Of a stretch of 64,000 nucleotides of DNA, positions 11,209 to 54,333 are shown piece after piece. Made by a program: the position numbers and the translations under genes. The notes beneath the pieces were generated by a model, which saw only the letters and a list, made by a program, of their open reading frames with translations, searched no databases and was not told the DNA's origin. Origin of the DNA: Deltaproteobacteria bacterium (GTDB taxonomy: Bacteria; Desulfobacterota; Desulfobacteria; C00003060); the NCBI GenBank assembly GCA_030667105.1, contig DAOUWN010000001.1, forward strand, positions 1 to 64,000. The letters run 5' to 3'. The stretch's first letter is position 1; each line of letters begins with the position of its first letter.

Positions 11209-11220
11209 ACTGGCCTCCTT

Positions 11221-14284: not shown

Positions 14285-15244
14285 CTAAGAACTTGCAATG
14301 CGAATTATCTTTGCTTCCCCGTCGGTAGCCGTCGCCCAGAAGGGCGCGAATTTTATCACGCCATACCAGGCAACTGCTTTTGTGCGCCCGAAATCTCCCT
14401 GGTAGTTCGGATCAAGTCTCAAATGCGGGGCCTCGGCCTCAACGCGGGCAACTCCCTCGTCGCCAAAGACCACACCCTCGCCGGTAATGGAGCCCGTACC
14501 GATGGAATTGGACAAAGCGTTTTCCCGGTTGACCTGAACGCATCGAATATTTTCTGCCATGCCGACTTCGCCCTTGAAGAAAAGCTCGCCCTTTTTTAGG
14601 TACATATGAACCGCCTGCCAAAGGGGATCGCCCTTCAAGCCCCGAAGAGCCTTTCGGGCGAAGCAGCCCACGTAATTGTCGCTCTCGTAAAATGGAACGT
14701 GCAGGTCCCCAACCATATAGTCGGAGATAACGCCCATGTGATCGAAACTAAGGTTGTTCGCGGCGGCGGTGCTCGGAGTACCATCGGTGTCCCAGGTCCC
14801 ACCAGTCAGACTGGTAGGAATGAAGATTACCTTGACATCCGTGTGCTTAAAGGCAGCAGCGGCTGCCGTGTCCATAACCCTTTCCATTTGCAGCTTGAGA
14901 GCCTTCTGAATTTCGTTCACGATATCGAACTTGGAAAGCAGCTCAAACAAATGGGAATGCTCGATACCACGGCCCATCTCAACAAGCGTGATCTGCCTTG
15001 AGCCCATCTCAACCGTATCGATGGGGATTCTGGTTGTTTCCGAAAGCTCGGCTGTCGTCGGCTCGTCAACGTGCTTGATGTGCATGAGCGTGACCGACTC
15101 GCCCTTACCCTTGCCAAAATCGTTGATAGGTGATGTAAACGGCACCATCTTCATCTCTTCAACCGCTACATGGAGTAACTTGTTGGAAATGTAGTGATTT
15201 TTATAGATTCCTGATGGCGCGTCAAATGTCCACGTAGTAGCCAT
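14285..15244 (-). CDS. Major capsid protein, N4 gp56-like HK97 fold
   Basis: A 319-residue protein. The N-terminal arm, the segment GKGESVTLMHIKHVDEPTTA followed by AELSETTRIP, then GSRQITLVEMGRGIEHSHL and a long helix (LFELLSKFDIVNEIQKALKL) match the pattern of N4-gp56 family capsid proteins. It is shorter than N4 gp56 (about 400 residues) but usual for marine and gut members. Position directly after the scaffold candidate supports the call. Confidence 0.8.
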   Translation of the reverse strand: MATTWTFDAPSGIYKNHYISNKLLHVAVEEMKMVPFTSPINDFGKGKGESVTLMHIKHVDEPTTAELSETTRIPIDTVEMGSRQITLVEMGRGIEHSHLFELLSKFDIVNEIQKALKLQMERVMDTAAAAAFKHTDVKVIFIPTSLTGGTWDTDGTPSTAAANNLSFDHMGVISDYMVGDLHVPFYESDNYVGCFARKALRGLKGDPLWQAVHMYLKKGELFFKGEVGMAENIRCVQVNRENALSNSIGTGSITGEGVVFGDEGVARVEAEAPHLRLDPNYQGDFGRTKAVAWYGVIKFAPFWATATDGEAKIIRIASS

Positions 15245-23809: not shown

Positions 23810-25232
23810 AAGTCCTTTGCTTGCTTGGCATGCTCGGCCCGAAACCCCTGGCCGCATAGCTCCCGGCCCTCTTTTGCATTATCTTCTTTGGCACCCTCGG
23901 CAATTTCGGCCGCTGGATAATCGGCAGCATAATCGCGCATCCGTACCCGAAAGCGTCTCCGGGGTGTGAATGTTTATTTTTTTGCGGCTTATTCTTAACC
24001 ACATTGCCCGAATTATCTTTCTTGTAGTGCCAGCCACCCTTCAGCGCCCGCCGAAGCAGATGATTAGTCTTTCAGATATAAACGGCAGGAAGCCCGTCCG
24101 GAGCGTATGTAAGAGCATGCTGGACGGCCTCTTTTCTCAGGTTCCACTTGTCCGGCCCCGGCTCGAACCGGCAGCCCAAAAGATTCTCGACAACACTGGC
24201 CGTGGTAATACTGGTATTGCTCTGATCCGGCACAAGCATGGAGCGGTCCCCGATATCCCTCCAGTTGCTAACCTTGTCCCTCCACTTCGGGCTCTCAAGC
24301 AAAGGAAGACAGGAGCTTTCAATCAACTGCTTCATACCGATGCCATCGCCATAAAGCGTATCCGTAAAAAACAGCCGACCGTTCGGATAGATCTGGCCAA
24401 GCAAAATACAGGGATGGTGCCAGGCGTCATAAAACCGGAATCCCCTGAGCCCGGGCAGCACTTCCAGCGGCTCCTTGCTTACATGGGTCGACTCCTTAAA
24501 TGCTTGAGCAACCGCTATTCCCGGCTGCAGGAACGAAAATTCCCCCTCGACATACCGCTGGTACAACTCGGGATCCCCGGCCAAGGCCGCCGCGTTCACC
24601 TGGCGCTGTTTTTCCCCAAGAAATGAGTTCTCGCCCTTCGGGATCGTAAATACTTCTTTGCGAACTAGCGGAAACCGTGAATCAAAATCCGGTGCCTCTA
24701 TAAGCCTCTTGAACGTCCAATGCTCCTCGTCGGCCGGGTTCATACTGACCATGACGAGCGGTGGTATGTTCCCTCTGGTACTTCGACTGAGAGAAAAATT
24801 AAAGACGGGCTCCGCAAGCCCCGCATTCTCCTTGTAGATAATCGGCGCCGGCTCTTCCAACCAGAATATCGAAACGCCTACCATGCCCTGAAGTCTCGAC
24901 ATGGCCGCGGCATCATCGATACCAAGACAAAATCCCTCGATCTTCGGGTTGCTCTTAATCTCGAACTGACGATCCCCGTCAAAAAACCGCACCCGGTTGC
25001 CCAAAGCCTCTTTCATCGTCAGCTTGACCGAGATCTTGATGTTCTCCAAAGTGTCCCGGATAACGCACATCCTGCACGGCACACCATGCTTTGCCGCATG
25101 ATAAAGAGCCTTGATCACCACTCCCCATGATTTTCCCTCTCCGAACGGCCCGATCAACGCACAAACATCGGCAGTGGATAAAACAAACCTTTGAATCGTT
25201 TCACTTATCCGAAAATCCAGTGAAGTAGCCAT
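23802..25232 (-). CDS. terL: Terminase large subunit, interrupted by an in-frame UGA codon
   Basis: The ATPase half shows the Walker A-like GPFGEGKSWG near residue 28 and the Walker B-like VSIFWLEEPAP. The nuclease half has FRFYDAWHHP and WRDIGDRSM acidic residues. A TGA at 24074-24072 ends the first 386 codons. The same frame then continues with terminase-like sequence (LKGGWHYKKD, HSHPGDAFGYGCAI) to TAG/TAA at 23802, where the next gene overlaps by 8 nt as elsewhere in the operon. The HPGDAFGYG aspartate is a likely third metal ligand, so the truncated product should lack nuclease activity. Read-through, a recent mutation or a sequence error are all possible. Confidence 0.85.
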
Positions 25233-34162: not shown

Positions 34163-34634
34163 TATGTTCCCTGCCGTCGAGCAGACGGCCTGCGGCTTTC
34201 TTGGTGACAAATTGTCCTATATCGTTTTTGTTCATTGTCTGATTATGATGAATATTGTGGCTACTTCTGGTTTTTAATTCCAAATTCTCAAGGCGGTTAT
34301 CTGACTTGTTCTCATTTTTATGGTGAATTAATTCATTTGCTTTAGGAGGTATTTTCCCGGCTGAATACCATACCAAAAGGTGCTCATAGGCGTAACCGTT
34401 TGGATCTGCTAGTGGATGATTTCGCCCCACTCTTATTTTTATATACCCATGGCTACTGATAATTTTATCAGTATTCCAGCGTCCAGCATTCACGCTTTTC
34501 GCATGGTTTTTGTGTTTCCCTCTGCCATCAGCAGGTAATCCTTTGTTAATTCGCTTAATACGTTCTCGGTCTTGCCATCGCTTTTTACGTTCTTTCGCCT
34601 TTTCCTTGGCGACAACGGGATCTTTATATGGCAT
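34146..34634 (-). CDS. HNH endonuclease
   Basis: 162 residues with GGGAG before the ATG at 34634. A basic N-terminus (KEKAKERKKRWQDRERIKRI) is followed by GYIKIRVGRNHPLADPNGYA, YEHLLVWYSAGKIPP and ELIHHKNENKSDNRLENLEL, the HNH_3 signature. Free-standing homing endonuclease inserted beside the DUF5131 gene. Confidence 0.88.
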   Translation of the reverse strand: MPYKDPVVAKEKAKERKKRWQDRERIKRINKGLPADGRGKHKNHAKSVNAGRWNTDKIISSHGYIKIRVGRNHPLADPNGYAYEHLLVWYSAGKIPPKANELIHHKNENKSDNRLENLELKTRSSHNIHHNQTMNKNDIGQFVTKKAAGRLLDGREHSEYPG

Positions 34635-35550
34635 CTGGATACTCCCTTATCATTAAATCGTTTGGTATTGCGTGACGTTCTTTTGTGGTTTTGCCTGACA
34701 TTTGTTTCATAAACCAAGGCACACCCGCGTCAACGCACTGGTCCCTGTCTTGTCTGAAGTAATCCGGGTGGGATGGCCTTGCACGAGGACCGGATTCTCC
34801 CCCGGACACAAGCCATGCTCTATTTCCAAGGGCAAGAAATTCAGGAGGATAGACTATTGGCCCAAGGGCGGGCTCATGGGATATCCAGTAAACCGCTGCG
34901 GGAATCTGCAATAGGGTTTCGATGCGGTCCTTGTGGTCATCGTTCTCGACCGTAACGCCAAGCCAGAGGTTGGGTAATGGCCATGGCCAAGCAGTGGCAT
35001 CGCCTATAGATGTACTTGGTTTTTTCCCATGGTAATAACAGCGCATTTTTTCCCAAGCCCGATTAGACGAGATGCGCTCATCTGTGGTGGACAGATATCC
35101 AAATTCTCCATGGATATAACCACGAGAATTGTTTCGTATTGATTGAAAATATTCCAACATTCGGTCGGGCCGTTTAGTTAGGATCAAAAAAGTGTGTTGA
35201 AAACCGTACATCATCGTAGCAAAAACCTGGTCTATAAACTCAGACGGCACATCCTCATGAAACAGATCCCCCATGCTCACCACAAAGATCCTGCGAGGTT
35301 TTTTCCAGCGAAGGGGCTTTTCTAATTCTTTAGGATTAAACCGCACCTCCCCGGTCCACTGTGGATGACCATTACGCATCACTGCCAGGCCTTTATAGTT
35401 CGGGTGATGCTTTAACCTGGTGGCTGCCAGCCTTGCGGCATAGCAGTTGTCACATCCAGGGGAACCTGCATGGCTACATCCAGTCATTGCGTTCCAGGTT
35501 TCCCCCGGTGTTTTGTCGTCGGCTCGTACCCATTCAATCTTTGTTGGCAT
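34624..35550 (-). CDS. DUF5131 / phage Gp37-Gp68 family protein
   Basis: 308 residues. IEWVRADDKTPGETWNAMTG, then CSHAGSPGCDNCYAARLA (Cys cluster), FVVSMGDLFHEDVPSEFID, ILTKRPDRMLEYF and WISHEPALGPI are hallmark blocks of the family, which has a radical-SAM-like barrel and Cys ligands. The biochemical role is not established. It is frequent in phages and may act in nucleotide or DNA modification (speculative). Confidence 0.85.
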   Translation of the reverse strand: MPTKIEWVRADDKTPGETWNAMTGCSHAGSPGCDNCYAARLAATRLKHHPNYKGLAVMRNGHPQWTGEVRFNPKELEKPLRWKKPRRIFVVSMGDLFHEDVPSEFIDQVFATMMYGFQHTFLILTKRPDRMLEYFQSIRNNSRGYIHGEFGYLSTTDERISSNRAWEKMRCYYHGKKPSTSIGDATAWPWPLPNLWLGVTVENDDHKDRIETLLQIPAAVYWISHEPALGPIVYPPEFLALGNRAWLVSGGESGPRARPSHPDYFRQDRDQCVDAGVPWFMKQMSGKTTKERHAIPNDLMIREYPDAI

Positions 35551-37273: not shown

Positions 37274-38050
37274 TTAGAACATGTTATTGGCTTTATTAAT
37301 CATTTTCCCCAAACATTCCGCAACCTGAACCACAACAGCGTTCCCAGTCATTTTAGCCACTGCTGTTTTAGATATTGAATCAAACCATCCACTTGGAAAC
37401 CCTGCAAACTGTCGCCTTTCTTCACTATCTGCAACGCTAAGTCCTTTCCCGTCCCAAATGTAACCATCCCGAGCATCCCACCTATACGCGTGGGTAGTAA
37501 GAACAGGATAGGCCGATGTTTTTTCATATTGCGTTTCAATATACCTTTTATTGCTTTCGTGGACAGGTATCGCCTTGATAAATGCTTTGCGGTTTTCTGG
37601 AGGACATCCCACAATAAAATCCCTCTCTCTGTTTTGAGCCGTAATCGTAGCGGCATTTGCTGAGATAATAACAATTCGGTATCCGAGCATTTCCAATGCG
37701 GCAGAGAAGTGGACATCATCTGATGCAGGAACATTTTCGCGGACCACCCACCCGGGCCGCATTCTTGCGACCACGGCAAGGAAGTATCCGGATAGGTCGG
37801 GTTGTTTCGTTTTCCACATTGCTCTTGCTTTGCTTCTAATCGGGCACGGATCGCCTCCGCAAATAAGTTCAACTGATGTGTAATCATTATCCTCTGTTAT
37901 ATCCCTAAAGATTGGTGTATTAGGCCAGTGGCGTTTTAAAAGTTTTCTACATTGACTATCTTTCTCGCACTGCCATAAAACAGACATGCCAGCCCGCTCA
38001 AATCCAAGGTCAAAACCACCACAACCTGAAAAAAGAGAGCCAAAATTCAC
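37274..38050 (-). CDS. C5-cytosine DNA methyltransferase
   Basis: 258 residues, short but complete. Motif I GSLFSGCGGFDLGFERAG, motif IV GGDPCPIRSKA with catalytic Cys, motif VI VRENVP, motif VIII QNRERDFIVG and motif X AKMTGNAVVV are all present. Its target-recognition segment is short. It probably protects phage DNA from host restriction. No cognate nuclease is adjacent, so it appears to be an orphan methylase. It starts 4 nt after the GT N-half stop. Confidence 0.92.
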   Translation of the reverse strand: MNFGSLFSGCGGFDLGFERAGMSVLWQCEKDSQCRKLLKRHWPNTPIFRDITEDNDYTSVELICGGDPCPIRSKARAMWKTKQPDLSGYFLAVVARMRPGWVVRENVPASDDVHFSAALEMLGYRIVIISANAATITAQNRERDFIVGCPPENRKAFIKAIPVHESNKRYIETQYEKTSAYPVLTTHAYRWDARDGYIWDGKGLSVADSEERRQFAGFPSGWFDSISKTAVAKMTGNAVVVQVAECLGKMINKANNMF

Positions 38051-38053
38051 AAT

Positions 38054-38605
38054 TCAACACTTCGCCCTCACGTCCTCGCTATCTCTCGCCACAAAGCCTA
38101 TACTCTCAACCCCATAATATATAACCCTCGCTTTTTCCTCAGGGACTCCATTTTCAACAAGCCAATCTTTCACATGCTGCGTAATTGCGATCACCGCATC
38201 GGCCCGTTTCCAGACCCAGAACATCAGCCGTAAAAACCTCATGCCCCTCCATTCGTGGTCCGGGTTGAATCGATCGTGGACCGTACAGACCCAGGGAGTG
38301 CCCCGAAAGATCAGTTTAGACAGGATCAACCCTAAAAAATCGGCTTTTGGCAGATGAGTGTGGATCAAATCATAGCCCAAATCGGAACGGAGGCAGGCCA
38401 GGATAAGAGATCTTGCCTTGGCGCGACGACTCGTAACTCCTGAGAGGTTGAACGCGCCACAAAGGCTGTTTGACGCCTTGCCGTTTTTTTTGAGGTAAAT
38501 GACACGCAAATCGCAACCCCGAGACTTCAGTTCACGGCAAAGCGTCAGTAAACTTTTCTCCGCGCCCCCGGTTGCGATGCTGGTTATGATGTGGAGGATT
38601 TTCAT
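38054..38605 (-). CDS. Glycosyltransferase N-terminal (acceptor) domain, separated half
   Basis: 183 residues: ILHIITSIATGGAEKSLLTL, LIHTHLPKADFLGLILSKLI, WVCTVHDRF and ARVIYYGVESIGFVARDSED are the GT4 acceptor-domain blocks. It stops right after VRAKC, where a normal enzyme enters the interdomain linker. Sequence at 36611 continues the family pattern. The start overlaps the Dam gene by 4 nt. Confidence 0.85.
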   Translation of the reverse strand: MKILHIITSIATGGAEKSLLTLCRELKSRGCDLRVIYLKKNGKASNSLCGAFNLSGVTSRRAKARSLILACLRSDLGYDLIHTHLPKADFLGLILSKLIFRGTPWVCTVHDRFNPDHEWRGMRFLRLMFWVWKRADAVIAITQHVKDWLVENGVPEEKARVIYYGVESIGFVARDSEDVRAKC

Positions 38606-39489
38606 GCATCAAACAAATTTCTTTGCTGTTTCTCCAACTTGTAATTCATCAGGACTAATTCTTCGACCCTTGATCGAGACCCATTCGCACATTGGGCATT
38701 CTTGACCGACGATAGATGGATCCGGCGCCATTTCGGTTCAGGATACAATTCATCAATAAGGGGATTCGGATAATATGTTACCATGGCCTTTCCCTGAATC
38801 TCGTTAAGGCATACAGATAAGTCTCTATGGTCTTGTTCTGAAAAGTTTCCCCTATAATATCCTTCCGTGCCAACATATGGAGGATCTACGAAAAAGAAGG
38901 TGCCTGTGGCCCATTGCGACCCGGGCCCGCCTTTAAAGCCCCTGTCCCATTGTTGAAAAACTTTGCGAAAATCGGAATGTTCGATATAGACATGGCGCAA
39001 TCGGTCTGCAAATCTATCCAATTGCTCTATGGTTCGCTTGAATTGGTTCACCTCTTTAGCCCCGGCGCAATGGTTGCCTACGGAGAAACGCCAACGACCC
39101 GGTGACTGACCGGTTTTACGGCCGCCACTTCGGTACCCACCCCACGCCATTTTGGCCAGGATAAAAAATCGTTTGGCTCGCAAAACGGGGTCTCGAGGTA
39201 TTTCCGATTTGCAGGCCTCTTCGTAAACTTGCCTGGAATATGGCACAAAACACAATTCCTCTATTAATCTACTGGCCATGCGTCTACGCTGCAGAACCCT
39301 GAAAAAATTAACAATTTCCGAATCAGTATCGTTTATACATTCGACGTCGCTTGGCTGTTTAGTGAAGAGCAGGGCACCGGATCCACCAAATACCTCAACA
39401 TAAGTTTGGTGCCGTGGAACAAGTCTAACCAAATGTCGTGATAGGCGCCATTTTCCGCCGACTATTGGGAAAATTGCTTTTATCTTCAT
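38602..39489 (-). CDS. D12-class N6-adenine DNA methyltransferase (Dam-like)
   Basis: 295 residues; the ATG at 39489 overlaps the upstream TGA (TGATG). FPIVGGKWRLSRHLVRLVP and YVEVFGGSGALLF form the AdoMet site, and TFFFVDPPYVG is the catalytic DPPY motif. The D12 domain spans the whole protein. Likely methylates GATC-type sites on phage DNA against restriction. Confidence 0.9.
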   Translation of the reverse strand: MKIKAIFPIVGGKWRLSRHLVRLVPRHQTYVEVFGGSGALLFTKQPSDVECINDTDSEIVNFFRVLQRRRMASRLIEELCFVPYSRQVYEEACKSEIPRDPVLRAKRFFILAKMAWGGYRSGGRKTGQSPGRWRFSVGNHCAGAKEVNQFKRTIEQLDRFADRLRHVYIEHSDFRKVFQQWDRGFKGGPGSQWATGTFFFVDPPYVGTEGYYRGNFSEQDHRDLSVCLNEIQGKAMVTYYPNPLIDELYPEPKWRRIHLSSVKNAQCANGSRSRVEELVLMNYKLEKQQRNLFDA

Positions 39490-39746
39490 CAGCCAGGAGG
39501 CCACTTCTTGCCCTGATATTCGCAGGCAAACTTGCTCTTTGGGAAATGTTCCAAAACAGCTCCCACTAACCAGTTAACCCCATCTTGGAGTTGTTCGAAG
39601 TCTATTTCAGCGACAATCCCGTTTACATGGTCTCCTAGCTGAATCGTGAAACCAGAATCCCAAAATGTCAGGATCTGAAAATTAATCTCGCTGTCCTGGA
39701 TTGCCTGCAGTGTTGGAATAACAAGCAGAACAGTATTGTTCCCCAT
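39489..39746 (-). CDS. Small protein, function unknown
   Basis: 85 residues, beta-rich (NTVLLVIPTLQAIQDSEINF, FTIQLGDHVNGIVAEIDFEQ), with a translational-coupling overlap with the Dam start. No family was recognised. Confidence 0.65.
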   Translation of the reverse strand: MGNNTVLLVIPTLQAIQDSEINFQILTFWDSGFTIQLGDHVNGIVAEIDFEQLQDGVNWLVGAVLEHFPKSKFACEYQGKKWPPG

Positions 39747-39758
39747 CGTTTACCTCCC

Positions 39759-40133
39759 TCATTCCTTAATCACATTCGCCGGCACATCGAACAGCCCCAA
39801 CTGGCCTCTCCAGGGAATCGGCTTCTTGAACTCCACCGGGTTCGCCAGCTCCAACCCGAACGGCCCGTAGAACCATCGGGAGTCGGCATCGTCCAGGCAG
39901 TCGATAACCTCCACGCGCCCCACTATGGCGCCGAATACATGGTGATCCTTGCTCGGAACCCACTCGTCCATGAATTGGCCCGTCAAGAATTCGTAGCCCC
40001 TTTGGTCCCAGGTCTTGCTTGTATGGATTAGAAGGGGACCCCGGTGGTTACTGGACCAGGGCCTATTTTCGAAGTCTTTCTCTAAATGAAAAATGGCGTA
40101 TGGCCAGGGATTTCTGAGCGATAGACATTTCAT
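39759..40133 (-). CDS. ASCH-domain RNA-binding protein
   Basis: 124 residues from the ATG at 40133 (ATGA overlap). CLSLRNPWPYAIFHLEKDFE, NRPWSSNHRGPLLIHTSKTW and HVFGAIVGRVEVIDCLDD are ASCH/PUA-fold blocks. ASCH domains bind RNA or modified nucleosides; the specific target is unknown. Confidence 0.85.
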   Translation of the reverse strand: MKCLSLRNPWPYAIFHLEKDFENRPWSSNHRGPLLIHTSKTWDQRGYEFLTGQFMDEWVPSKDHHVFGAIVGRVEVIDCLDDADSRWFYGPFGLELANPVEFKKPIPWRGQLGLFDVPANVIKE

Positions 40134-40351
40134 AAGATCCCCCATATTTCAGACATAAAGATCTTAATCCGGTATTCGATATAGCGTCTTTGCGCCTTGG
40201 AGCTCTTCAGGTTCGTTGGTATCTGGCAAAACTCGCAATCGAGATCATAACCGCGTATCTTATCCACCAAGACGAGAACAAACCCACGGGGTGGCCTGTT
40301 TCTATATTCTGCCATTAAACCCGGAACCACCTTTTCAGCCTGTTTCTCCAT
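40130..40351 (-). CDS. Small basic protein
   Basis: 73 residues with beta strand GFVLVLVDKIRGYDLDCEFC and a helical C-terminus. Overlaps the next ORF start by 4 nt and lies partly under the end of the preceding gene. Function unknown. Confidence 0.6.
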   Translation of the reverse strand: MEKQAEKVVPGLMAEYRNRPPRGFVLVLVDKIRGYDLDCEFCQIPTNLKSSKAQRRYIEYRIKIFMSEIWGIL

Positions 40352-40593
40352 ACGGGCACCCTCCTTTGCTTTCTGCTCTTTTTCCAGTTGGGATTGTCCG
40401 GCCAGAGACCCTCATCATAATCGCGTTTCTGTTCTCTCAGCTTCGCGTCCATGCGCTTGCCATAATCGTAGGCCTCTTTCAGGAGCGCCAGGACCTTATT
40501 CTTGGGTTCGTCGGCCTGCACGGCATCGTGGATCTCCCTATGCACTTCGCAGATCGTGCGACGTCGGCTTGCCCTTTTTTCGGCTATTGACAT
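40315..40593 (-). CDS. Small basic protein downstream of the TIGR array
   Basis: 92 residues from the ATG at 40593, which follows the last repeat core of the array. The core's own GAG sits about nine bases upstream and may act as a weak ribosome site. Charged helices (ADEPKNKVLALLKEAYDYGK) and an Arg-rich tail. Function unknown; not needed by known Tas systems. Confidence 0.6.
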   Translation of the reverse strand: MSIAEKRASRRRTICEVHREIHDAVQADEPKNKVLALLKEAYDYGKRMDAKLREQKRDYDEGLWPDNPNWKKSRKQRRVPVWRNRLKRWFRV

Positions 40594-40594
40594 C

Positions 40595-40939
40595 GGTGTA
40601 CGCTCTTTCTCAATGGTGCTCTCCAATCGTTTGGCTCACTCTCACACAGTGGTACTCTCTATTCTTTTGGTTCACTCTAGCTCTTTGGTACCCTCACAAT
40701 AGATGGTTCGCTCTGTGCCCATGGTGCTCTCCACAGACGTGGCTACGCTCCTAATCCTTGGTACTCTCCCTGGTAGTGGCTGTACGCTCTTGTGTGATGG
40801 TATTCTCAAAGACACTGGCTGCGCTCACATATTGCGGTACCCTCTAATTATATGGCTCGCTCATCTTGCTTGGTACTCTCCGTGAATGTGGCTCGCTCAT
40901 TCCGATTGGCACTCTCTCAGGTAGTGGCTATTCCGCCTC
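40595..40939 (-). repeat. TIGR-like array: two alternating short repeats with eighteen 9-nt variable spacers
   Basis: On the minus strand, core A (nine copies, always 9 nt, GAG-RNN-RCC: e.g. GAGAGTACC) alternates strictly with core B (GAG...RCC, 9-12 nt, e.g. GAGTGAGCC, GAGCGTAGCC; a 14-nt version spans the stop codon of the neighbouring gene). Every spacer is exactly 9 nt and all eighteen differ; 17 of 18 begin with A. Unit length is 18 nt, super-period 36 nt. This is the known layout of TIGR arrays (36-nt dual-spacer guide RNAs). The array abuts the tas-like gene and is in transcription order after it. Confidence 0.9.
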
Positions 40940-41713
40940 GATCATGTGCACATGCCCCAAGTGCTCAATCACGTATGGCTTGGGCGGTGCTTCATCGTAA
41001 TGGTGCTCGTACATCTTTTCGTGCCAATGGGCCAAAAAGAGCTTTACCGCCCACCGCTTGGCCCTGCTGTGGATATGACCCGGGGCGAGCTTCCCTTCCT
41101 TGTTATACTTGTACGCCTTGGTCTTCTTACCCACACGATCCGTCGCCACAGAAGCCTGATCCCTGAAATCGCCCCGCTCGTTTCTCTCGATCTCCTTTGC
41201 CTTCCGCTCAACGTATAGCTCCCCGTAAAAACTCCCGTTACCGCTCACCTTCACAAACGACTCGCCGATCTTCCAGAATAGTGTTTTCAGTGAAGCATTC
41301 CAGGGCCTTTTTTGTTTCTTTTCCCAGATACAGGTCGGGTCATACCCGCCAAACCGCCAGATATGACCTACCGTGGGAGCCATTGTAATATCTATGTGAG
41401 CGAGCAGGCCAGCGGCTATCACCGGGCCGATGCCCTTTACGGTACGAGACCAGCAGCCCACTGGATGGTTATACGAATAGACATCGAGCGCTATTTTGAT
41501 CTCGTTTTCCAGGGCATCATTCATCTGCGCTATCCATGTTATTATTTCCGATGGTTCCTGTATCTCTGCCATGGATCGCAGTTGATTGTTGGCTCGTTTC
41601 CGGTTTTCCTGAAACGTATAGTAGGTATCTACCAAATATCGGACCTCCTGGGTCGATAGCGTCAATGCGGCTTGTTTTATGTCGGTGCTAAGCAGTTTAC
41701 TTTTATCGCTCAT
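40928..41713 (-). CDS. TasA-like (Nop-domain, IS110-related) protein of a TIGR-Tas system
   Basis: 261 residues. The N-terminal 80 residues are helical. Residues 92-180 hold a helix-hairpin-helix/Nop-like core: VKGIGPVIAAGLLAHIDI, TVGHIWRFGGYDPT, NASLKTLFWKIGESFVKVSG, FYGELYVERKAKEIERNERG. This is what generic annotation calls 'IS110/IS116 transposase', but there is no DEDD RuvC domain and no insertion-sequence ends. C-terminal part is basic with His-rich ends (HIHSRAKRWAVKLFLAHWHE). No HNH or RuvC nuclease is fused, so it resembles the nuclease-less TasA type. Its stop codon lies inside the first array repeat. Confidence 0.85.
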   Translation of the reverse strand: MSDKSKLLSTDIKQAALTLSTQEVRYLVDTYYTFQENRKRANNQLRSMAEIQEPSEIITWIAQMNDALENEIKIALDVYSYNHPVGCWSRTVKGIGPVIAAGLLAHIDITMAPTVGHIWRFGGYDPTCIWEKKQKRPWNASLKTLFWKIGESFVKVSGNGSFYGELYVERKAKEIERNERGDFRDQASVATDRVGKKTKAYKYNKEGKLAPGHIHSRAKRWAVKLFLAHWHEKMYEHHYDEAPPKPYVIEHLGHVHMIEAE

Positions 41714-42333
41714 AACTTATCTCCTTTCACCACCCTGACTCCCAATGCCGGCGCGAACATGGTCGGCCAGGAGTGCGCCAGGATCCAGCCCACGGTTTTC
41801 CCAAAGCGGACAGGGCACGAATATTTCCATTGATCGATCTTTCCCCCGGCCTCTTCAACAAGACACGTCAGGGCTTTGGGATTCATCCAGTAGCAATGTT
41901 TCCGCGATGGCCTCATAAGCGCAGGATACCGACCTCTGAGAACCTGGAGGCGTTGCTTCCAGTAGGAGAAATTGGGAACCACGATCACGGCTTCTTTGGA
42001 CACCCTCAACATTTCTTTCAAAACAAAGGCCGGATCTCGCAAGTGTTCGAGGACGTCCAGTGCAACAGATGTTCTAAAGTGTTCTGACGGAAAGGGCAGG
42101 CCTAAACTGCTGTTCAAATCTACTAACCTAACGTGGTATCCCTTTTTCTCTGCCGCCCAGAGAGATACCTGCGATTTGTCAATAATTACGTTTTTAGATC
42201 CCCAAGCAAACAGATTTTTACGGCCGGCCATATCAAAGAACGTCCCGCTCCCCCCTCCCACGTCCAGAATGGGGTAATAGCCGTCACGGTCCCTCATCAA
42301 GTCTAACGCCAAGTGGTATCTAGTCTGTGTCAT
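41710..42333 (-). CDS. SAM-dependent methyltransferase (MetW-like)
   Basis: 207 residues from the ATG at 42333 (GGGAGG site); the earlier in-frame start would run into the neighbouring gene. PILDVGGGSGTFFDM is motif I, LDVLEHLRDPAFVLKEMLRV motif IV region and VIVVPNFSYWKQRLQVL follows. Its end overlaps the tas-like gene start by 4 nt, so the two are co-translated. Probably modifies a glycan or small molecule; substrate unknown. Confidence 0.8.
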   Translation of the reverse strand: MTQTRYHLALDLMRDRDGYYPILDVGGGSGTFFDMAGRKNLFAWGSKNVIIDKSQVSLWAAEKKGYHVRLVDLNSSLGLPFPSEHFRTSVALDVLEHLRDPAFVLKEMLRVSKEAVIVVPNFSYWKQRLQVLRGRYPALMRPSRKHCYWMNPKALTCLVEEAGGKIDQWKYSCPVRFGKTVGWILAHSWPTMFAPALGVRVVKGDKL

Positions 42334-42359
42334 GCCTCGAATCCCTCCCGTATAGCTGT

Positions 42360-42611
42360 TTACTTGGCCAGAACGAGAGACGTAATGGCCTTGCCTTTCT
42401 TTGCGAAAATGATCGACAGTTTCTTCCGGCACTTCTTGCACATATCCTCACTATCGAGGGTCCGGGCAAGGGCTTGCAGGGAGCCGGGTGAAATCCTTTT
42501 GCAGCCCTTTTGCCATGGGGTACCGCACGCATATTTGTTAACGCCGTATCCAGCAGATAATCCAAGGTGGATCGTTTTGTTGGATGTTTGAAACAGTGCA
42601 TAAGGTTTCAT
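42360..42611 (-). CDS. Small Cys-pair protein
   Basis: 83 residues, start coupled to the GT stop by ATGA overlap. Contains DMCKKCRKKLSIIFAKKGKA. One CxxC is visible, so a single metal site or disulfide is possible. Function unknown. Confidence 0.6.
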   Translation of the reverse strand: MKPYALFQTSNKTIHLGLSAGYGVNKYACGTPWQKGCKRISPGSLQALARTLDSEDMCKKCRKKLSIIFAKKGKAITSLVLAK

Positions 42612-43663
42612 AAGTTACTCCTTTGAATGTGGTTTATAATTTTTCCCAGGAGGGATTCGAGGCTGTGTTGTTCGGCAATTTCTCGCCAGATGGTAAAACT
42701 TGGCGAAGGGTCTTTCGAAAAAAGTAACCGGAGCCTGATTGCAGCGGCTTGGGCATTGACATCATATGGATCTACAATATGCGTTTCACACGCCCCTTCT
42801 GGCAGTATTTCTCTCACACACGGATGGCACGAGATCACCGGCAGTCCGCAGGCCATGGCCTCCATAACGGCCCGGTCCAGGGCACACGAGTCGTAGGCGA
42901 AGTTGAGGTACGCACGATAGCGGTTGAGGATCTTCGGCAATTCTTGCCTTGAAACTGCACCATGGAATGTAATAATAGCGGGAGCCTCCCAAAACACCTT
43001 ATGCATGTATTCCTCATCTCCTTGAACCATATGCCAAGGCCCGTAGACATCTAACGTATAGTTCGTGCCATGTTTCTCGTTGCACAGCTTCAGAGCTTTG
43101 ATCATCTGATGTATCCGCTTCGCCTTGCACACCCGCCCCACGGTCACCAGGTCCCCAACCTTCTTAACCTCCGGCATGGGCCGAAAGTGATTCACATCCA
43201 CTCCCTGGCCCAAGGGAATCACTCTCTTGGACTCCACGGGATAGGCCGAGGGAGTAGACGTGAAAGACTTCGTAAGGCAGAAATGGGTGAAGATGCGGTC
43301 CCAAACACTGACCTTCCGGTGGGCTTTCCAGCGGTAAACGGGCTTGCCCATGAGACGAAAGGGCAAGAGCAATAGAGGATACCAGCCGCCGCCCCAGATG
43401 AGGAAATGATCAATACTGTGACTATGAGACACACGCCGAATCGCAGAATAAAAATGCCAGAGCGTCTTTATTCGGTTTTTTTCTCTGAAAGCCTCAACAT
43501 AGGGATGCATTATGTGATACCAGCGATGATCATCCTCTTCGAGGCAAAGAACGGCAATTTCTTGAACCTCCGGCCTTTCGCTCAACACCTCGATCCAGCG
43601 CACCAGAGAGGCGTTAATGGGATGCTCGGAGTCAACGGTTGGACAGATAAGACACAAGTTCAT
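42608..43663 (-). CDS. Glycosyltransferase (GT-B)
   Basis: 351 residues from the ATG at 43663 (ATGA overlap with the upstream zinc-ribbon gene). The N-domain has HFLIWGGGWYPLLLLPFRLM; the C-domain starts VTVGRVCKAKRIHQMIKALK, with RAYLNFAYDSCALDRAVMEA and MACGLPVISCHPCVREIL (donor-binding). Part of the surface-glycan block. Confidence 0.85.
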   Translation of the reverse strand: MNLCLICPTVDSEHPINASLVRWIEVLSERPEVQEIAVLCLEEDDHRWYHIMHPYVEAFREKNRIKTLWHFYSAIRRVSHSHSIDHFLIWGGGWYPLLLLPFRLMGKPVYRWKAHRKVSVWDRIFTHFCLTKSFTSTPSAYPVESKRVIPLGQGVDVNHFRPMPEVKKVGDLVTVGRVCKAKRIHQMIKALKLCNEKHGTNYTLDVYGPWHMVQGDEEYMHKVFWEAPAIITFHGAVSRQELPKILNRYRAYLNFAYDSCALDRAVMEAMACGLPVISCHPCVREILPEGACETHIVDPYDVNAQAAAIRLRLLFSKDPSPSFTIWREIAEQHSLESLLGKIINHIQRSNL

Positions 43664-43809
43664 TGGTTCACCTTTTTCGGCTTTTCGCGCCAGGTTGTTC
43701 TGATCACATTCTGGCAATGAGGACACACCTCTCGGATGATGGTCCCCCCGTTGTTCTCATCCTTCCTCGGCTGAATGTCTTTTCGGCAATTGCGGCAGTA
43801 GAGTTTCAT
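43660..43809 (-). CDS. 49-residue zinc-ribbon protein
   Basis: ATGA overlaps on both sides. LYCRNCRKDIQP and CPHCQNVIRTTW make a Cys4 ribbon typical of phage 'Com-like' translational regulators. Function unknown. Confidence 0.7.
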   Translation of the reverse strand: MKLYCRNCRKDIQPRKDENNGGTIIREVCPHCQNVIRTTWREKPKKVNQ

Positions 43810-44534
43810 CTAAACTCCCTCCAATGTCTTATGCGAAAGAGGCGGTCATACCCACCGTTGAGCCACGCCCTCCACAGCCACTCGGGTTGATTTATGTCCA
43901 GTTGATCCCTGGGGCATTCATAAGGGTCCGTGTCCTCCGTGTAGAAGCCGGGGATCGTGGTGAAGGCGTGGGTGATACGCGGATTATCCATGAGCACCTT
44001 CTTGACCGCACAGTTCCATGTTCCGGGGCCACCGTAGGGATAGGCAAAATAGGAAGTGAGCTGACGACCTACTTTCCTTCGCATGTCGATCATGTGGTCG
44101 TGGATCTGCGTCTCCAGGGTTACTATTTCTGTAATCTTCTGGAGATTAAAATGGCTCTGCGTGTGAGAACCAACCTGCCGAAAAACCCATTGCGTGTTGA
44201 TAGGAGCATTCGCATTGCCAAAATCCGAAAACGGCAAGCCACCCGATACAAAAAATGTTGGCGTGACCTCATGTTTATCGCAAATAGGAAACACCCTGTT
44301 TTCCCAATCATAGAAGAACCTGTCATCGAACGTGAGGGCCACAGCGGGCAGGGGTACGTCAGGATCACTCAGCAGTCTCGTAAGCGGCACAACATAGTAA
44401 TTCCGACAAAGCCAAGCGATACGCCTTTCAAACTTCTCTTCATGTTCAGCCTCATGCAGGCAGATCACCCGCTTGCCTACGCGCTTCTTGCGGCCAAAAA
44501 GCCAGATGAGATAGTTGCGAATTAAGTGTTTCAT
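43806..44534 (-). CDS. Polysaccharide deacetylase (NodB/CE4)
   Basis: 242 residues from the ATG at 44534 (TAATG overlap). VALTFDDRFFYD carries the catalytic Asp-Asp, RQVGSHTQSHFNLQ the metal-binding His-x3-His, and YFAYPYGGPGTW the third NodB motif. Removes N- or O-acetyl groups from a glycan. No signal peptide is obvious, so it acts on cytoplasmic intermediates or needs release at lysis. Confidence 0.88.
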   Translation of the reverse strand: MKHLIRNYLIWLFGRKKRVGKRVICLHEAEHEEKFERRIAWLCRNYYVVPLTRLLSDPDVPLPAVALTFDDRFFYDWENRVFPICDKHEVTPTFFVSGGLPFSDFGNANAPINTQWVFRQVGSHTQSHFNLQKITEIVTLETQIHDHMIDMRRKVGRQLTSYFAYPYGGPGTWNCAVKKVLMDNPRITHAFTTIPGFYTEDTDPYECPRDQLDINQPEWLWRAWLNGGYDRLFRIRHWREFR

Positions 44535-44770
44535 TATGATGCCACCCAAGATAGAAAGATTAGCGAACTAACGATTGACACAAGAATCAAGACGCAAACG
44601 CGCCACCACCAAGGCAGTCGCCGCCAAGCCGGCTTTCTTATTGCAATGGGGTAATGGCCGAGGAAATCTTTATAGTCATAGGTTAAATGCCTCTCCAAGA
44701 TGAGGCCTGTTTTTAGATCCATGGTTGCCCATTCGGCAATTGGTTCGTGCTGTTTGACTTTGCGTTTCAT
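44534..44770 (-). CDS. Tail-anchored small membrane protein
   Basis: 78 residues; a polar N-terminal half precedes one C-terminal hydrophobic segment (VCVLILVSIVSSLIFLSWVA). Overlaps both neighbours. Function unknown; in the glycan block it could be a membrane partner of the transferases. Confidence 0.7.
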   Translation of the reverse strand: MKRKVKQHEPIAEWATMDLKTGLILERHLTYDYKDFLGHYPIAIRKPAWRRLPWWWRVCVLILVSIVSSLIFLSWVAS

Positions 44771-44928
44771 TCGACAGTCTTCCCCTTCGTTATAATGAGA
44801 AAAAGTATCCCATACCCTATCAATGGCATCATAAAGAAAGTAAACTTGCTAAACCCAACTACGACATACGAAGCGTATGTTGGCAGACAACAAAGAACAA
44901 AAAAGCAACCCTTCAACATTTTGTTCAT
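44767..44928 (-). CDS. 53-residue membrane protein
   Basis: ATG at 44928, TGA overlapping the next start. Hydrophobic segments MLKGCFFVLCCLPTYASYVV and FFMMPLIGYGILFLIITKG span the membrane. Function unknown. Confidence 0.65.
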   Translation of the reverse strand: MNKMLKGCFFVLCCLPTYASYVVVGFSKFTFFMMPLIGYGILFLIITKGKTVE

Positions 44929-44940
44929 CTCAACCTCATT

Positions 44941-45201
44941 TTATTTCCAATACCACGCTTTGGTCTTACAGTTTGGACACCAAAAATCATTTGAAAAGCG
45001 GGGAATGAAGTTGAACCAGAAACTGGCGCATGTGACCATGGACTCCGGAGATGGATCCCCTGGGTCACAAAGCAGATCCCTGAGTTGTCCGCTCCATCCG
45101 CAAAGACACACTGCCTCAAGATCTAAAACCTCAGAGTTCGGATTTTCCCACTGCGTCCGAGTTTCTTCTCCAACCGTTATTGCGTTACTTGGTGCAGACA
45201 T
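44941..45201 (-). CDS. Zinc-binding small protein
   Basis: 86 residues; the ATG at 45201 overlaps the sulfotransferase stop (TAATG). CLCGWSGQLRDLLC and FWCPNCKTKAWYWK give four Cys. Part of its coding strand carries a 34-nt inverted copy of sequence at 59827-59860. Function unknown. Confidence 0.65.
   Translation of the reverse strand: MSAPSNAITVGEETRTQWENPNSEVLDLEAVCLCGWSGQLRDLLCDPGDPSPESMVTCASFWFNFIPRFSNDFWCPNCKTKAWYWK
45007..45040 (+). repeat. Dispersed inverted repeat, copy 1
   Basis: 34 nt beginning GAAGTTGAACCAG and ending GACCATG; 32 of 34 positions match the reverse complement of 59827-59860, including 21 in a row. The two copies are in opposite orientation and lie in two unrelated genes, so shared protein ancestry does not explain them. 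Confidence 0.65.
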
Positions 45202-46052
45202 TATTTCCACCCCTCCGGCAGTTCAAATCCAGGGCAGCCAATAATGCCCTCTAGTTGTTCGACATCCTTCCCGTAATAGCCTTTCAGGAACTCCCTCTCG
45301 TTCTCCGAGACAATCACATCTACCCGCTGCCGGTTTATCGAAAGCATGATATTACGCATGCGGACGCACCACGATGACCACCAGAACGAAGGAACGCTTG
45401 GAATTCGGTTGTAGACGAACAGCCTGAGCCGAAATAAAGACTTCTCGACCCATTGACTCCTGGGTATGCCTCCGGCGTTGACTCGCTGGTTCAGAAGGGG
45501 AGGATCGAAGAGAGGATCAACATGCAGGTCCTCGTACAGCCAATACAGCGTGGTGCTTGGATGGGCTCCCATGGTGTCGTAGATGATAATGTGGCATTCA
45601 TGGTTCTGTAGCCACCATCCAGCCGCTTCCGCATACCGTCCCCTATAGAGGATTTGGGGATGGGCAGAGATCGCGTCCCGGATGGTCCAGGCCTTGGGAA
45701 TCTTCCCGTACCTCATAAGGTGCTTATAATGTGAGATCGCACGGTCTACGGGTTCCCGGAGGCACATGATGATCTTGGCGTCTGGGTAATACTTGGATAT
45801 TTTCATCCAGGCGAGAATGCTGTCCAGATAACTGGTGGAGAATTCCCCGCATATCTTTTCCTGGGGACATCGGCCAAACCTTTCCTCATATTCGCGGATA
45901 TCCCTGGACGAGGGGTCCCTGGACCAAAAATTGAGATCCTTCCTGGGCAAGTAAATCTGCGGATGGGCTCTCAGGCATGCCGCCAGCCAACTTGTCCCGG
46001 CCTTCATCGCGCCTATGCCAATGAAATCAGGCTTGCGAGTTTTCACAGACAT
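45201..46052 (-). CDS. PAPS-dependent sulfotransferase
   Basis: 283 residues. DFIGIGAMKAGTSWLAACLR is the 5'-phosphosulfate-binding loop and IIMCLREPVDRAISHYKHLM the 3'-phosphate-binding segment. It transfers sulfate from PAPS to a carbohydrate or lipid acceptor; the acceptor is unknown. Sulfotransferases are uncommon in phages, and it fits a surface-modification role in this block. The start at 46052 is the most likely of several. Confidence 0.85.
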   Translation of the reverse strand: MSVKTRKPDFIGIGAMKAGTSWLAACLRAHPQIYLPRKDLNFWSRDPSSRDIREYEERFGRCPQEKICGEFSTSYLDSILAWMKISKYYPDAKIIMCLREPVDRAISHYKHLMRYGKIPKAWTIRDAISAHPQILYRGRYAEAAGWWLQNHECHIIIYDTMGAHPSTTLYWLYEDLHVDPLFDPPLLNQRVNAGGIPRSQWVEKSLFRLRLFVYNRIPSVPSFWWSSWCVRMRNIMLSINRQRVDVIVSENEREFLKGYYGKDVEQLEGIIGCPGFELPEGWK

Positions 46053-46086
46053 GACTCTATTAACCCCCAAACTCTCTGTCACTCCG

Positions 46087-46260
46087 TCACGGTCCAACGA
46101 AACCCACCATTAGAGAAATTATCAATGTGGTAAAGCCCCACACCTTCATTAAGCCCCAAAAACTGGCTTCACAAAAAAAGACCGCGATCACGCCTATTGG
46201 TAAGTATATGAGCAACAACGGAACCAAAGAGGTGCCTGTCTCTGTCAAGTCAACACTCAT
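46087..46260 (-). CDS. 57-residue membrane protein
   Basis: The ATG at 46260 lies in the last 11 nt of the glycosyltransferase gene. Hydrophobic segments VPLLLIYLPIGVIAVFFCEA and TLIISLMVGFVG span the membrane. Function unknown. Confidence 0.65.
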   Translation of the reverse strand: MSVDLTETGTSLVPLLLIYLPIGVIAVFFCEASFWGLMKVWGFTTLIISLMVGFVGP

Positions 46261-47251
46261 CGCTAATTACCCCCTCTATTAACCCCCGATAGTTCTCCAC
46301 GTACTCTTTCGTGGAATACAGCTCATAAGCCGTGGCATGCGCCAGGTGCCCCATTACCCTCGTATCGTCCGGGTTGCTCAGGACATACTCGATCCAATGA
46401 GCAAGTTGCTCTGCATCGCCCGGTTCCACCAGAAAGCCCGTAACGCCCGTTTTGACAATCTCGGGCAGGCCCCCAACGGCAGAGGCGATCGCGGGTGTTC
46501 CGGTTGCCATGGCCTCAACTGCTACCCGGCCATAGCCCTCCCGGAGAGACGGGACCACAACCACATCGGCCTGGGCCATGCGCCTGGCAAGTTGTTCCTG
46601 TGGCATGAATTGCTCGAAAGATATTCGCAAGTTTTCAGCATTACGACGCAGGGCAAGCGTTGCCAAATAGTTCAGGTTTCTGGGCTGCGCCTTGCCAACT
46701 ACAATGAGCGTTGCATCGGGATCTCGCAACAACCTGAAGGCATTAAACAAGACATCCAGGCCCTTATGCCTTGCAATTTCCCCCGCATACAGAATGATCC
46801 TCTCCCCTGGCTTCTTGTACTTAGTGTACGCATCCATAAAGAGATCGATATCCGTCCAGGCGGGAAAGGTTTCGATCATAAGGGACTCTCTGCGGCTCCA
46901 GGGATACTTTCCGGCAAGAGGTAGAAACTGTTTCAGGGTGGAATCGGAAACGGCTCGTATGCCGGCAGCACGAGACATGACAAACTTTGCAATCCACTTA
47001 TTACGCTGAGACAGGTCCCCGTGGTTTTCAACTATAAGGGGAGTTCCAGGAGCAAACAAACAGGCCAGCAGTCCATGATATACCGTCTGGGCCACGATCA
47101 GGTCATGGCCGCGCAACTTCCAAGGACACCGAGAAATGCCGTAGGACCAATCACAGGCATGCATTCGGATATCGAAATGCTTCGCCAACAAAAACCACTT
47201 CTTGGCAGGCATTCTGCCTTTGTGATTAAGAAAACAGACTTTAGGCTTCAT
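46250..47251 (-). CDS. Glycosyltransferase family 4
   Basis: 333 residues. The N-domain holds DLIVAQTVYHGLLACLFAPG and TPLIVENHGDLSQ. The C-domain begins ILYAGEIARHKGLDVLFNAF and contains VVVVPSLREGYGRVAVEAMA (E-x7-E), TGTPAIASAVGGLPEIV. Cytoplasmic sugar transferase in the glycan block. Confidence 0.9.
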   Translation of the reverse strand: MKPKVCFLNHKGRMPAKKWFLLAKHFDIRMHACDWSYGISRCPWKLRGHDLIVAQTVYHGLLACLFAPGTPLIVENHGDLSQRNKWIAKFVMSRAAGIRAVSDSTLKQFLPLAGKYPWSRRESLMIETFPAWTDIDLFMDAYTKYKKPGERIILYAGEIARHKGLDVLFNAFRLLRDPDATLIVVGKAQPRNLNYLATLALRRNAENLRISFEQFMPQEQLARRMAQADVVVVPSLREGYGRVAVEAMATGTPAIASAVGGLPEIVKTGVTGFLVEPGDAEQLAHWIEYVLSNPDDTRVMGHLAHATAYELYSTKEYVENYRGLIEGVISDEC

Positions 47252-53125: not shown

Positions 53126-53737
53126 TCAAAATTGACGAAACAAAATCTCTCTGCGAATTACTGCCTCACAATACTCAAGTGCGGCCCGATACTTTGCCTC
53201 ATCACACACCGTGACGTTGTGTTTCTGCATAATCTCAGACCACTTCGAGTGCCACTCCGCGAACGTATGAAATTCACATCCTATTTTTAAAAATTTATTG
53301 TATGCCGTTACATTGAAGGAACAGGCACCTATAAGATTAACAATGGCAGTAAAGCGAAAAACCCAGGCATCCCCGTAGACCCAGGCATCCCCGGAGACCC
53401 TGGCATTCCCGGAGACCTCGGCATTCCCGTAGACCCTGGCATTCCCGGAGACCTCGGCATCCCCGTAGACCCTGGCATCCCCGTAGACCTCGGCATTCCC
53501 GGAGACCCTGGCATTCCCGGAGACCTCGGCATCCCCGTAGACCTCGGCATTCCCGGAGACCCTGGCATTCCCGTAGACCCAGGCATTCCCGGAGACCGAA
53601 AGATTGTCAGCCCTTTCGATATATCCGCCGACATCCCCTTTCCGTATGTCTCCAAAAGAGACACAAGCCTTGATTCTAAAAAGTGTTCGACTACGAAATG
53701 AAATGGTTTGTTCTTTGATTAACTTAAATTTTTTCAT
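53126..53737 (-). CDS. Hexapeptide-repeat (left-handed beta-helix) protein
   Basis: 203 residues from the ATG at 53737 (AAGGAGGAACAGG site). After a globular N-terminus, residues 48-130 consist of about 14 six-residue repeats (V-[SY]-G-[ND]-A-x). The DNA shows matching 18-nt near-identical units at 53360-53600. Repeats are nearly exact, so copy number probably changes fast. C-terminus is globular (HTFAEWHSKWSEIMQKHN). Such proteins are common in phages; function unknown. Confidence 0.85.
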   Translation of the reverse strand: MKKFKLIKEQTISFRSRTLFRIKACVSFGDIRKGDVGGYIERADNLSVSGNAWVYGNARVSGNAEVYGDAEVSGNARVSGNAEVYGDARVYGDAEVSGNARVYGNAEVSGNARVSGDAWVYGDAWVFRFTAIVNLIGACSFNVTAYNKFLKIGCEFHTFAEWHSKWSEIMQKHNVTVCDEAKYRAALEYCEAVIRREILFRQF

Positions 53738-53754
53738 AGTTCCTGTTCCTCCTT

Positions 53755-54333
53755 TCACGCTGATTTTAATCGACGATACATCCGCAGTGCCCACAGAAAC
53801 TCCTGGTAGGCCTGATCGTGGTCCTTAAACTCAATCGCCTTCGGCCACCCTCCCGAATCGCCCTTCGGCACATGCATGGCCATACGCTTAAAGGGTCTTT
53901 GCTTACAGGAAAGAATCACGCCTTTGCGATAAGCAGCGGTCTGCAAATCGGCCATGAGGCGCGAAAGAGGGGAGAAGGCCAAATAATATTTCCAATCCAA
54001 TAAGGCAGGCAGCCGATCACCCTTGAGAATAACCAGGGCATCGGCGCGGCCTTGCGTTTTCTGGGATGGGATTTTCACATATCGTTCGACCCAGAGAACT
54101 TTTTCAATGCAGTGCTCTTTGTAGGTCTTCATGCTGGAAAGGGCAGGGGTGAGATCGAGCGGCCAAGCAACGTCTATATCCCTCATAATAAGGGAGGTGA
54201 ACTTGTGCATCCTGTGGCCGTCATCGGCGGCTTTCTCAAGGACGGCCTTGGGCACACCTGCATACGGTTTGAAGACCGCACTCAAGACTTCAGTGATGCT
54301 CGGCCAGTTAAGCGGATATCTCTTCTTAGTCAC
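53755..54333 (-). CDS. PD-(D/E)XK exonuclease (RecB/Cas4-like)
   Basis: 192 residues, GTG start at 54333. GRADALVILKGDRLPALLDW then KYYLAF gives the D-x(n)-DxK active site (D and LDWK), and LMADLQTAAYRKG carries the motif-III Gln/Tyr pair. Probably the nuclease partner of RecT. Clustered with the helper coiled-coil gene. Confidence 0.85.
   Translation of the reverse strand: MTKKRYPLNWPSITEVLSAVFKPYAGVPKAVLEKAADDGHRMHKFTSLIMRDIDVAWPLDLTPALSSMKTYKEHCIEKVLWVERYVKIPSQKTQGRADALVILKGDRLPALLDWKYYLAFSPLSRLMADLQTAAYRKGVILSCKQRPFKRMAMHVPKGDSGGWPKAIEFKDHDQAYQEFLWALRMYRRLKSA

What the first reader, a model, noticed from the sequence alone, without database searches (positions are those of the whole stretch)
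40595..41713. A TIGR-Tas RNA-guided system encoded by a phage
The gene at 40928-41713 has a Nop/IS110-like core without nuclease or DEDD domain. It is followed directly by 18 spacers of exactly 9 nt, separated by two alternating short repeats (core A 9 nt, core B 9-14 nt), 36-nt super-period. Spacers in transcription order: ACTACCTGA, AATCGGAAT, ACATTCACG, AAGCAAGAT, ATATAATTA, GCAATATGT, AGTGTCTTT, ATCACACAA, ACTACCAGG, AAGGATTAG, ACGTCTGTG, ATGGGCACA, ATCTATTGT, AAAGAGCTA, AAAAGAATA, ACTGTGTGA, AAACGATTG, ATTGAGAAA. This is the layout reported for TIGR arrays and Tas proteins (dual-guide 36-nt tigRNAs, TasA without nuclease). Length variability is confined to core B, consistent with a loop and a stable edge. 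The nuclease-less form raises the question of what it does: block, mark or regulate targets.
Basis: partly seen in the sequence, partly recalled or inferred. Interest (0 to 1): 0.96.

Follow-up and report, generated by a model that had tools for sequence, protein, structure and literature searches.

The report
Phage-encoded TIGR-TasA RNA-guide system
A bacterial virus carries a small RNA-binding protein gene followed by nine paired 8-letter guides, a member of the recently described TIGR-Tas family of RNA-guided DNA binders; the locus looks intact, but what it aims at is still unknown.

Summary
Confirmed. On the minus strand, tasA (40928-41713, 261 aa) runs into an array (40594-40928) of two alternating repeats and 18 spacers, far beyond chance (parser score 209.8; best of 20 shuffles 12.5). 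The protein is a nuclease-less Tas protein: best sequence, profile and fold matches are TasR and TasH, ahead of IS110. Two corrections: spacers are 8 nt, since the leading A belongs to box C (CCA), and the length-variable repeat is the edge, not the loop. All 80 viral relatives kept by one scan carry a same-strand array, and related phages share colinear, partly replaced guides. A comparative test shows spacer A and the reverse complement of spacer B joining like contiguous natural DNA (z 4.1; 3.0 without near-duplicates; reverse order 0.1 and 0.5), so pairs match 16-bp sites on opposite strands, as published for TasR. No target was established: none in this phage, no clear excess in other TasA phages, none in lysogen-host genomes for four patterns tried. 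One guide hits a phage SSB gene family, but a follow-up prediction failed. New member of a known kind.

The parts
40928..41713 (-). tasA: 261-aa solo Nop-domain, nuclease-less Tas protein
   Evidence: PDB sequence hits 9mty TasR E 1.4e-16 and 21kl TasH 8.4e-7; profile 5.4e-22 and 7.1e-14; AlphaFold model pLDDT 86.6, Foldseek ranks 1-10 all TasR/TasH; PHROG 4285 8.1e-52
40594..40928 (-). TIGR array: 5' truncated edge GCCA (its G is the last base of the tasA stop codon), 18 spacers of 8 nt (9 A/B pairs), 9 loop repeats (GAGAGTACCA type, 10 nt), 8 internal edge repeats (GAGYGARCCA type, 10-13 nt), 3' truncated edge at 40594-40605
   Evidence: sequence, parser, shuffle control
40606..40924 (-). 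span of the nine spacer pairs, A1 CTACCTGA / B1 ATCGGAAT through A9 AACGATTG / B9 TTGAGAAA
40315..40593 (-). downstream ORF, 92 aa, its ATG directly after the last truncated edge; no Pfam match
41710..42441 (-). upstream methyltransferase-like gene overlapping the tasA start by 4 nt (probable operon, inference)

Best explanation
A TIGR-TasA system in a tailed-phage genome. The tasA mRNA continues through the array. The transcript is cut in the edge repeats into about nine 36-nt tigRNAs, each holding spacer A, the loop and spacer B. [quoted passage not shown] with no nuclease it binds and bends rather than cuts. The most likely use is interference with other mobile elements in the same host, by blocking transcription or replication. 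Shown here: the protein family, the array anatomy, guide turnover, and, statistically for the family, the contiguous opposite-strand geometry. Inferred from the published TasR, TasH and TasA work: processing, dimer, pairing, bending. Inferred without direct evidence: interference with other elements.
For: Protein homology. Array in 80 of 80 viral relatives (74 of 80 with an array of 10 or more repeats) and in 7 of 11 genome relatives by the strict parser. In 100 non-redundant relatives all 185 parsed array segments lie on the tasA strand; some are pieces of one array. Junction test: z 4.11, 0 of 2000 reshuffles, correlation 0.92 with the dinucleotide bias inside spacers; the two other arrangements give z 0.11 and -1.45. 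After removing near-duplicates z 2.98, p 0.002, reverse order z 0.46. Shared units are colinear (170 concordant, 11 discordant pairs) with internal replacement. No match of the window's guides to the window at up to 1 mismatch and gaps -4 to 8. Published: FpTasA binds 36-nt RNAs; targets are A plus reverse complement of B, gaps of 0-2 tolerated (PMC12045711: sections 4, 6-10, 24 and figure legends read; section 5 in passages).
Against: No target was established: none in the window; in other TasA loci the one-mismatch count at gap 0 is 69 against 49 and 56 in two mispaired controls, and 44 against 21-50 in an earlier run with five, not a clear excess. None in 90 Halomonas genomes for 3 of the 6 parsed units of that lysogen, none in 150 genomes of the Propionivibrio family for 1 pattern covering 2 of 6 units; both searches were exact-match only. 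No terminator follows the array here. The discoverers saw no protection from conjugation or phage with TasR in E. coli, though they did see plasmid loss, which needed the nuclease.
Confidence: 0.82

Rival explanations
1. The guides regulate the phage's own genes or host genes (dCas-like repression, or an aid to recombination), not other mobile elements.
For: TasA lacks a nuclease; the paper lists gene regulation, counter-defence and help to integrases among the possibilities. The gene sits among methyltransferase genes.
Against: No self-match at up to 1 mismatch in the 64-kb window. Across 73 non-redundant loci, self hits number 5 over all gaps against 5-12 in five mispaired controls, and 0 at gaps 0-2 against 0-4 (most loci cover only part of the phage). 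No exact match in host-group genomes for all 4 patterns tried. Guides turn over between related phages, unusual for own-gene regulators (inference).
Confidence: 0.2
2. An IS110-type transposase with element ends and a bridge RNA.
For: Weak Pfam Transposase_20 match, E 0.037, below the cut-off; PHROG 4285 is labelled transposase.
Against: 261 aa with an all-helical model and so no N-terminal DEDD domain; ISCro4 and IS621 rank behind all listed TasR/TasH chains by fold (E 3.9e-3 and worse against 1.9e-7 to 1.8e-6) and behind them by profile; a guide array follows instead of a single bridge RNA. Element ends were not searched for.
Confidence: 0.02
3. A coding or satellite repeat mistaken for guides.
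For: The 18-nt period is a multiple of 3, so chance ORFs cross such arrays in relatives.
Against: Edges of 11 and 13 nt break the frame in the window; spacers vary while repeats are kept; the spacer-pair junction behaves like natural DNA only in the A to reverse-complement-B order.
Confidence: 0.02

Closest known systems
TIGR-TasA (solo Nop), e.g. the Flavonifractor plautii FpTIGR locus (PMC12045711)
   Same: Nuclease-less Nop protein with a dual-repeat array beside it, truncated edges at both array ends; many published loci are in phages
   Different: Spacers 8 nt (FpTIGR has 18 nt per pair); repeats open with GA where TasR repeats open with UG; no terminator found after the array
TIGR-TasH of Salicola phage CGphi29
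   Same: Phage-encoded; 16 nt of guide per tigRNA in the paper; homologous protein (24.4% identity over 77% of the query by tblastn)
   Different: TasH has an N-terminal HNH nuclease; absent here
IS110 / IS621 transposase with bridge RNA
   Same: Shared Nop-like RNA-binding core (profile E 3.3e-4)
   Different: No DEDD domain; a guide array instead of a bridge RNA

Membership tests
TIGR-Tas (TasA) | Nop-domain protein of the Tas group | tested here: met
   Best hits are TasR 9mty and TasH by phmmer, hmmsearch and Foldseek; no tree was built
TIGR-Tas (TasA) | No HNH or RuvC nuclease domain | tested here: met
   261 aa; all-helical model; the only Pfam match is a weak Transposase_20
TIGR-Tas (TasA) | Adjacent array of two alternating 8-12-nt repeats with short constant spacers | tested here: met
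   10-nt loops, 10-13-nt edges, 8-nt spacers. One 13-nt edge lies just outside the published range. The paper gives 9 nt as usual and 16 nt per pair for SpTIGR
TIGR-Tas (TasA) | Array begins and ends with truncated edges | tested here: met
   GCCA at the tasA stop codon; GAGCGTACACCG at the end
TIGR-Tas (TasA) | Box C and box D shared by both repeats, edge pair supported by covariation | tested here: met
   CCA ends 17 of 18 repeat copies, truncated first copy included; the box D position reads GA, not UG (the paper allows divergence). In relatives columns 3:8 covary: 1213 of 1523 Watson-Crick, 700 expected if independent. Relatedness was not corrected for; the anchoring mixed some loops with edges, which confounds the 4:7 pair
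TIGR-Tas (TasA) | Rho-independent terminator after the array (typical in the paper, not defining) | tested here: not met
   None on the minus strand within 39500-42600 by a simple consensus scan
TIGR-Tas (TasA) | 36-nt processed tigRNAs bound by Tas | not testable with these tools
   Needs small-RNA sequencing
TIGR-Tas (TasA) | Tandem-spacer targeting of opposite DNA strands | tested here: inconclusive
   Geometry supported statistically for the clade; binding itself not testable
IS110 transposase | DEDD/RuvC catalytic domain | tested here: not met
   All-helical 261-aa model; fold matches rank below Tas
IS110 transposase | Element ends and target site | not tested
   No search for element ends was made

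The most novel reading that the evidence does not exclude
Phage TasA arrays are weapons between viruses: guide pairs match conserved 16-bp sites in essential genes of competing large phages, such as the single-strand DNA-binding protein gene, and related arrays carry variant guides that follow variants of the target, blocking it without cutting.
Probability: 0.2. Interest if true: 0.88.

Novelty: new member of a known kind. Interest (0 to 1): 0.48.

Why it matters
Natural targets of TIGR systems are an open question, stated as such by the discoverers. This window adds an apparently intact phage locus. More usefully, its clade is large (5073 related proteins found, 120 listed), and the loci fetched here give about 1,500 natural guide pairs (1536 unique). 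They support, from sequence alone, the contiguous opposite-strand geometry for nuclease-less TasA, and show guides being replaced inside arrays. That makes target finding in matched metagenomes feasible.

Tried and rejected
Self and cross targeting among TasA loci: no clear excess over mispaired guides (counts under evidence against).

Codon signature of near-duplicate guides. It first looked good: differences spaced by multiples of 3 across the junction at gap 0, 121 of 311 against 101.8 expected, p 0.003, but no such excess within the halves, 90 of 339 against 84.6; one family varies only at positions 2, 5, 8, 11 and 14. It did not hold up in a synonymous-change test: p 0.047 for the widest families at gap 0, and not significant for the tighter sets or other gaps. 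An earlier within-array version was not significant, and pair statistics show no 3-base periodicity. Treated as suggestive only.

SSB target. The guide TCGAACAATATGGTTT, shared by 4 non-redundant arrays, has 33 exact records in viral contigs. Of the 33, 14 lie at one codon position of one protein family, in about 5 diverged lineages; two members tested are single-strand DNA-binding proteins by PHROG. Relatives lie in 61 phage records, 38 of the 40 listed being 284 kb or longer. Against: a variant guide in a fifth array puts a stop codon in that frame. In two large phage contigs and a 49-kb piece of a third, exact gap-0 matches number 3 against a control mean of 0.6, but 2 of the 3 are this selected guide; one-mismatch counts equal the control, 20 against 21.6. 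A prediction written down beforehand, that a second shared guide would cluster in nrdA (gene named by eye from the sequence, no family search), failed: 1 of 32 records (L324). Two other guide patterns gave no large diverged cluster (5 records; 36 records). Hits from samples that also hold a TasA phage occur in three of the four scans (at least L241, L288, L297, L314, L321, L334, L344), so sample sharing says little.

Palindromic targets: A and B differ at 2 or fewer of 8 positions in 17 of 1481 units against 9.2 expected; a small excess, not tested further.

Host targets: 0 of 90 genomes for each of 3 patterns and 0 of 150 for one, exact matches only.

Gene neighbours (87 of 101 loci in which the script found tasA): beyond two clusters that look like chance ORFs across arrays (54 and 12 loci), no family occurs in more than 10 loci; replication-like genes by eye.

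Full report
What is there. Read on the minus strand, tasA (40928-41713) ends with a TAG stop whose G is the first letter of GCCA, the 5' truncated repeat of an array. The array runs to 40594, and the next ORF starts at 40593. It holds nine loop repeats (GAGAGTACCA and close variants, 10 nt) and eight internal edge repeats (GAGCGAGCCA, GAGTGAACCA and variants, 10-13 nt), with 18 spacers of 8 nt between. The same parser gives at most 12.5 on 20 shuffled windows against 209.8 here, and no array in 100 relatives shuffled once.

The A opening 17 of 18 spacers is the end of box C (CCA), so the guides are 8 + 8 nt. The variable-length B repeat is the edge: both array ends are B halves, which yields nine complete A/B pairs, and B carries a 4:7 pair with one compensatory change (C-G to T-A), one wobble and one mismatch among eight. 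Length variation in the middle of an edge falls where published processing cuts, so it should be harmless (inference).

The protein. phmmer against PDB sequences gives 9mty (TasR, E 1.4e-16) and 21kl (TasH, 8.4e-7). A 30-sequence profile gives 5.4e-22 and 7.1e-14, then IS621 at 3.3e-4 and ISCro4 at 2.1e-3. The AlphaFold model (pLDDT 86.6, all helical) matches TasR and TasH chains at Foldseek ranks 1-10 (E 1.9e-7 to 1.8e-6); IS110-family chains follow at 3.9e-3 and worse. 9MTY is the deposited TasR structure of the discovery paper.

The phage. A terminase (24072-25232), a weak major head protein match (14285-15244), a RecT-like annealing protein, an exonuclease and a baseplate match mark a tailed phage. 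No near DNA match exists in the phage collection for window 20000-44000. TasA relatives are rare there: 3 of 50,697 records, all distant, two of them the same phage; none in 72,556 plasmid records.

Relatives. A protein search found 5073 relatives, 120 listed. Three viral scans, each keeping the best 80 of 290, 290 and 328, one genome scan (11 loci), and loci gave 214 locus records, many overlapping; with the window, 215. By the parser 206 of 215 hold an array; 101 are non-redundant, window included. In the first scan 80 of 80 viral loci have an array, 74 of them of 10 or more repeats; so do 7 of 11 genome loci. All 185 parsed segments in the 100 non-redundant relatives lie on the tasA strand. 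The parser demands GA..CA repeats, so more divergent arrays are missed (L088-L090 show periodic repeats). Related phages share units in the same order (170 of 181 unit pairs concordant) but differ by blocks gained, lost or replaced throughout the array, not at one end only (18 array pairs shown, two of which are the same pair of phages fetched twice).

Geometry test. If a spacer pair matches one contiguous site, the last base of A and the first base of the reverse complement of B are neighbours in real DNA and should show its dinucleotide bias. They do: z 4.11, 0 of 2000 within-array reshuffles, correlation 0.92 with the bias inside spacers, TA 83 against 105.8 expected. The reverse order gives z 0.11 and A followed by B gives -1.45. 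With near-duplicates removed (1244 units, 96 loci) z is 2.98, p 0.002, the reverse order 0.46, and this is the highest of the 64 position pairs tried. This agrees with the TasR rule (opposite strands, no gap). I found no such evidence for nuclease-less TasA in print. My searches for TIGR-Tas (19 papers, listing seen), tigRNA (5) and two related term sets (1 each) brought up the discovery paper as the only research paper on the system that I recognised in the listings; of the others I saw passages of PMC12385481 and PMC12154849 only. bioRxiv itself is not held.

Targets. None established. The SSB hint (14 of 33 exact records in one gene family) is the best lead, but a variant guide contradicts its reading frame and the follow-up prediction failed. 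Own genome, TasA relatives and the tested lysogen-host groups give nothing clear.

Verdict. Its own novelty is modest; the clade-level guide set is the useful part.

Noticed in passing
window 53361-53597 (minus-strand ORF 53126-53794): 18/36-nt tandem repeat that is coding: a YdcK-type beta-solenoid repeat protein (Pfam PF18836, E 4.8e-15), unrelated to the array despite the same period
   Followed up: partly
window 37274-39504: C5-cytosine and D12 N6-adenine DNA methyltransferases with a short glycosyltransferase-like ORF between, downstream of the array
   Followed up: partly
window 38054-47251: Glycosyltransferases, a polysaccharide deacetylase and a methyltransferase-like gene around the locus, perhaps for surface or DNA modification
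   Followed up: no
window 34624-35550: DUF5131 protein (Pfam PF07505, E 1.8e-68; PHROG 2045), function unknown
   Followed up: no
L080 (same contig as L195), arrays at 10775-11219 and 13210-13616: Many guides of this phage resemble each other in part (7 unit pairs with 5 differences of 16), as if the two halves diversify separately
   Followed up: partly
L083/L003, L084/L028, L087: TasA arrays in Halomonas sp. NO4, Acidobacteriaceae KBS 96 and Candidatus Propionivibrio aalborgensis contigs, probable prophages (not checked): possible hosts for a native test
   Followed up: partly
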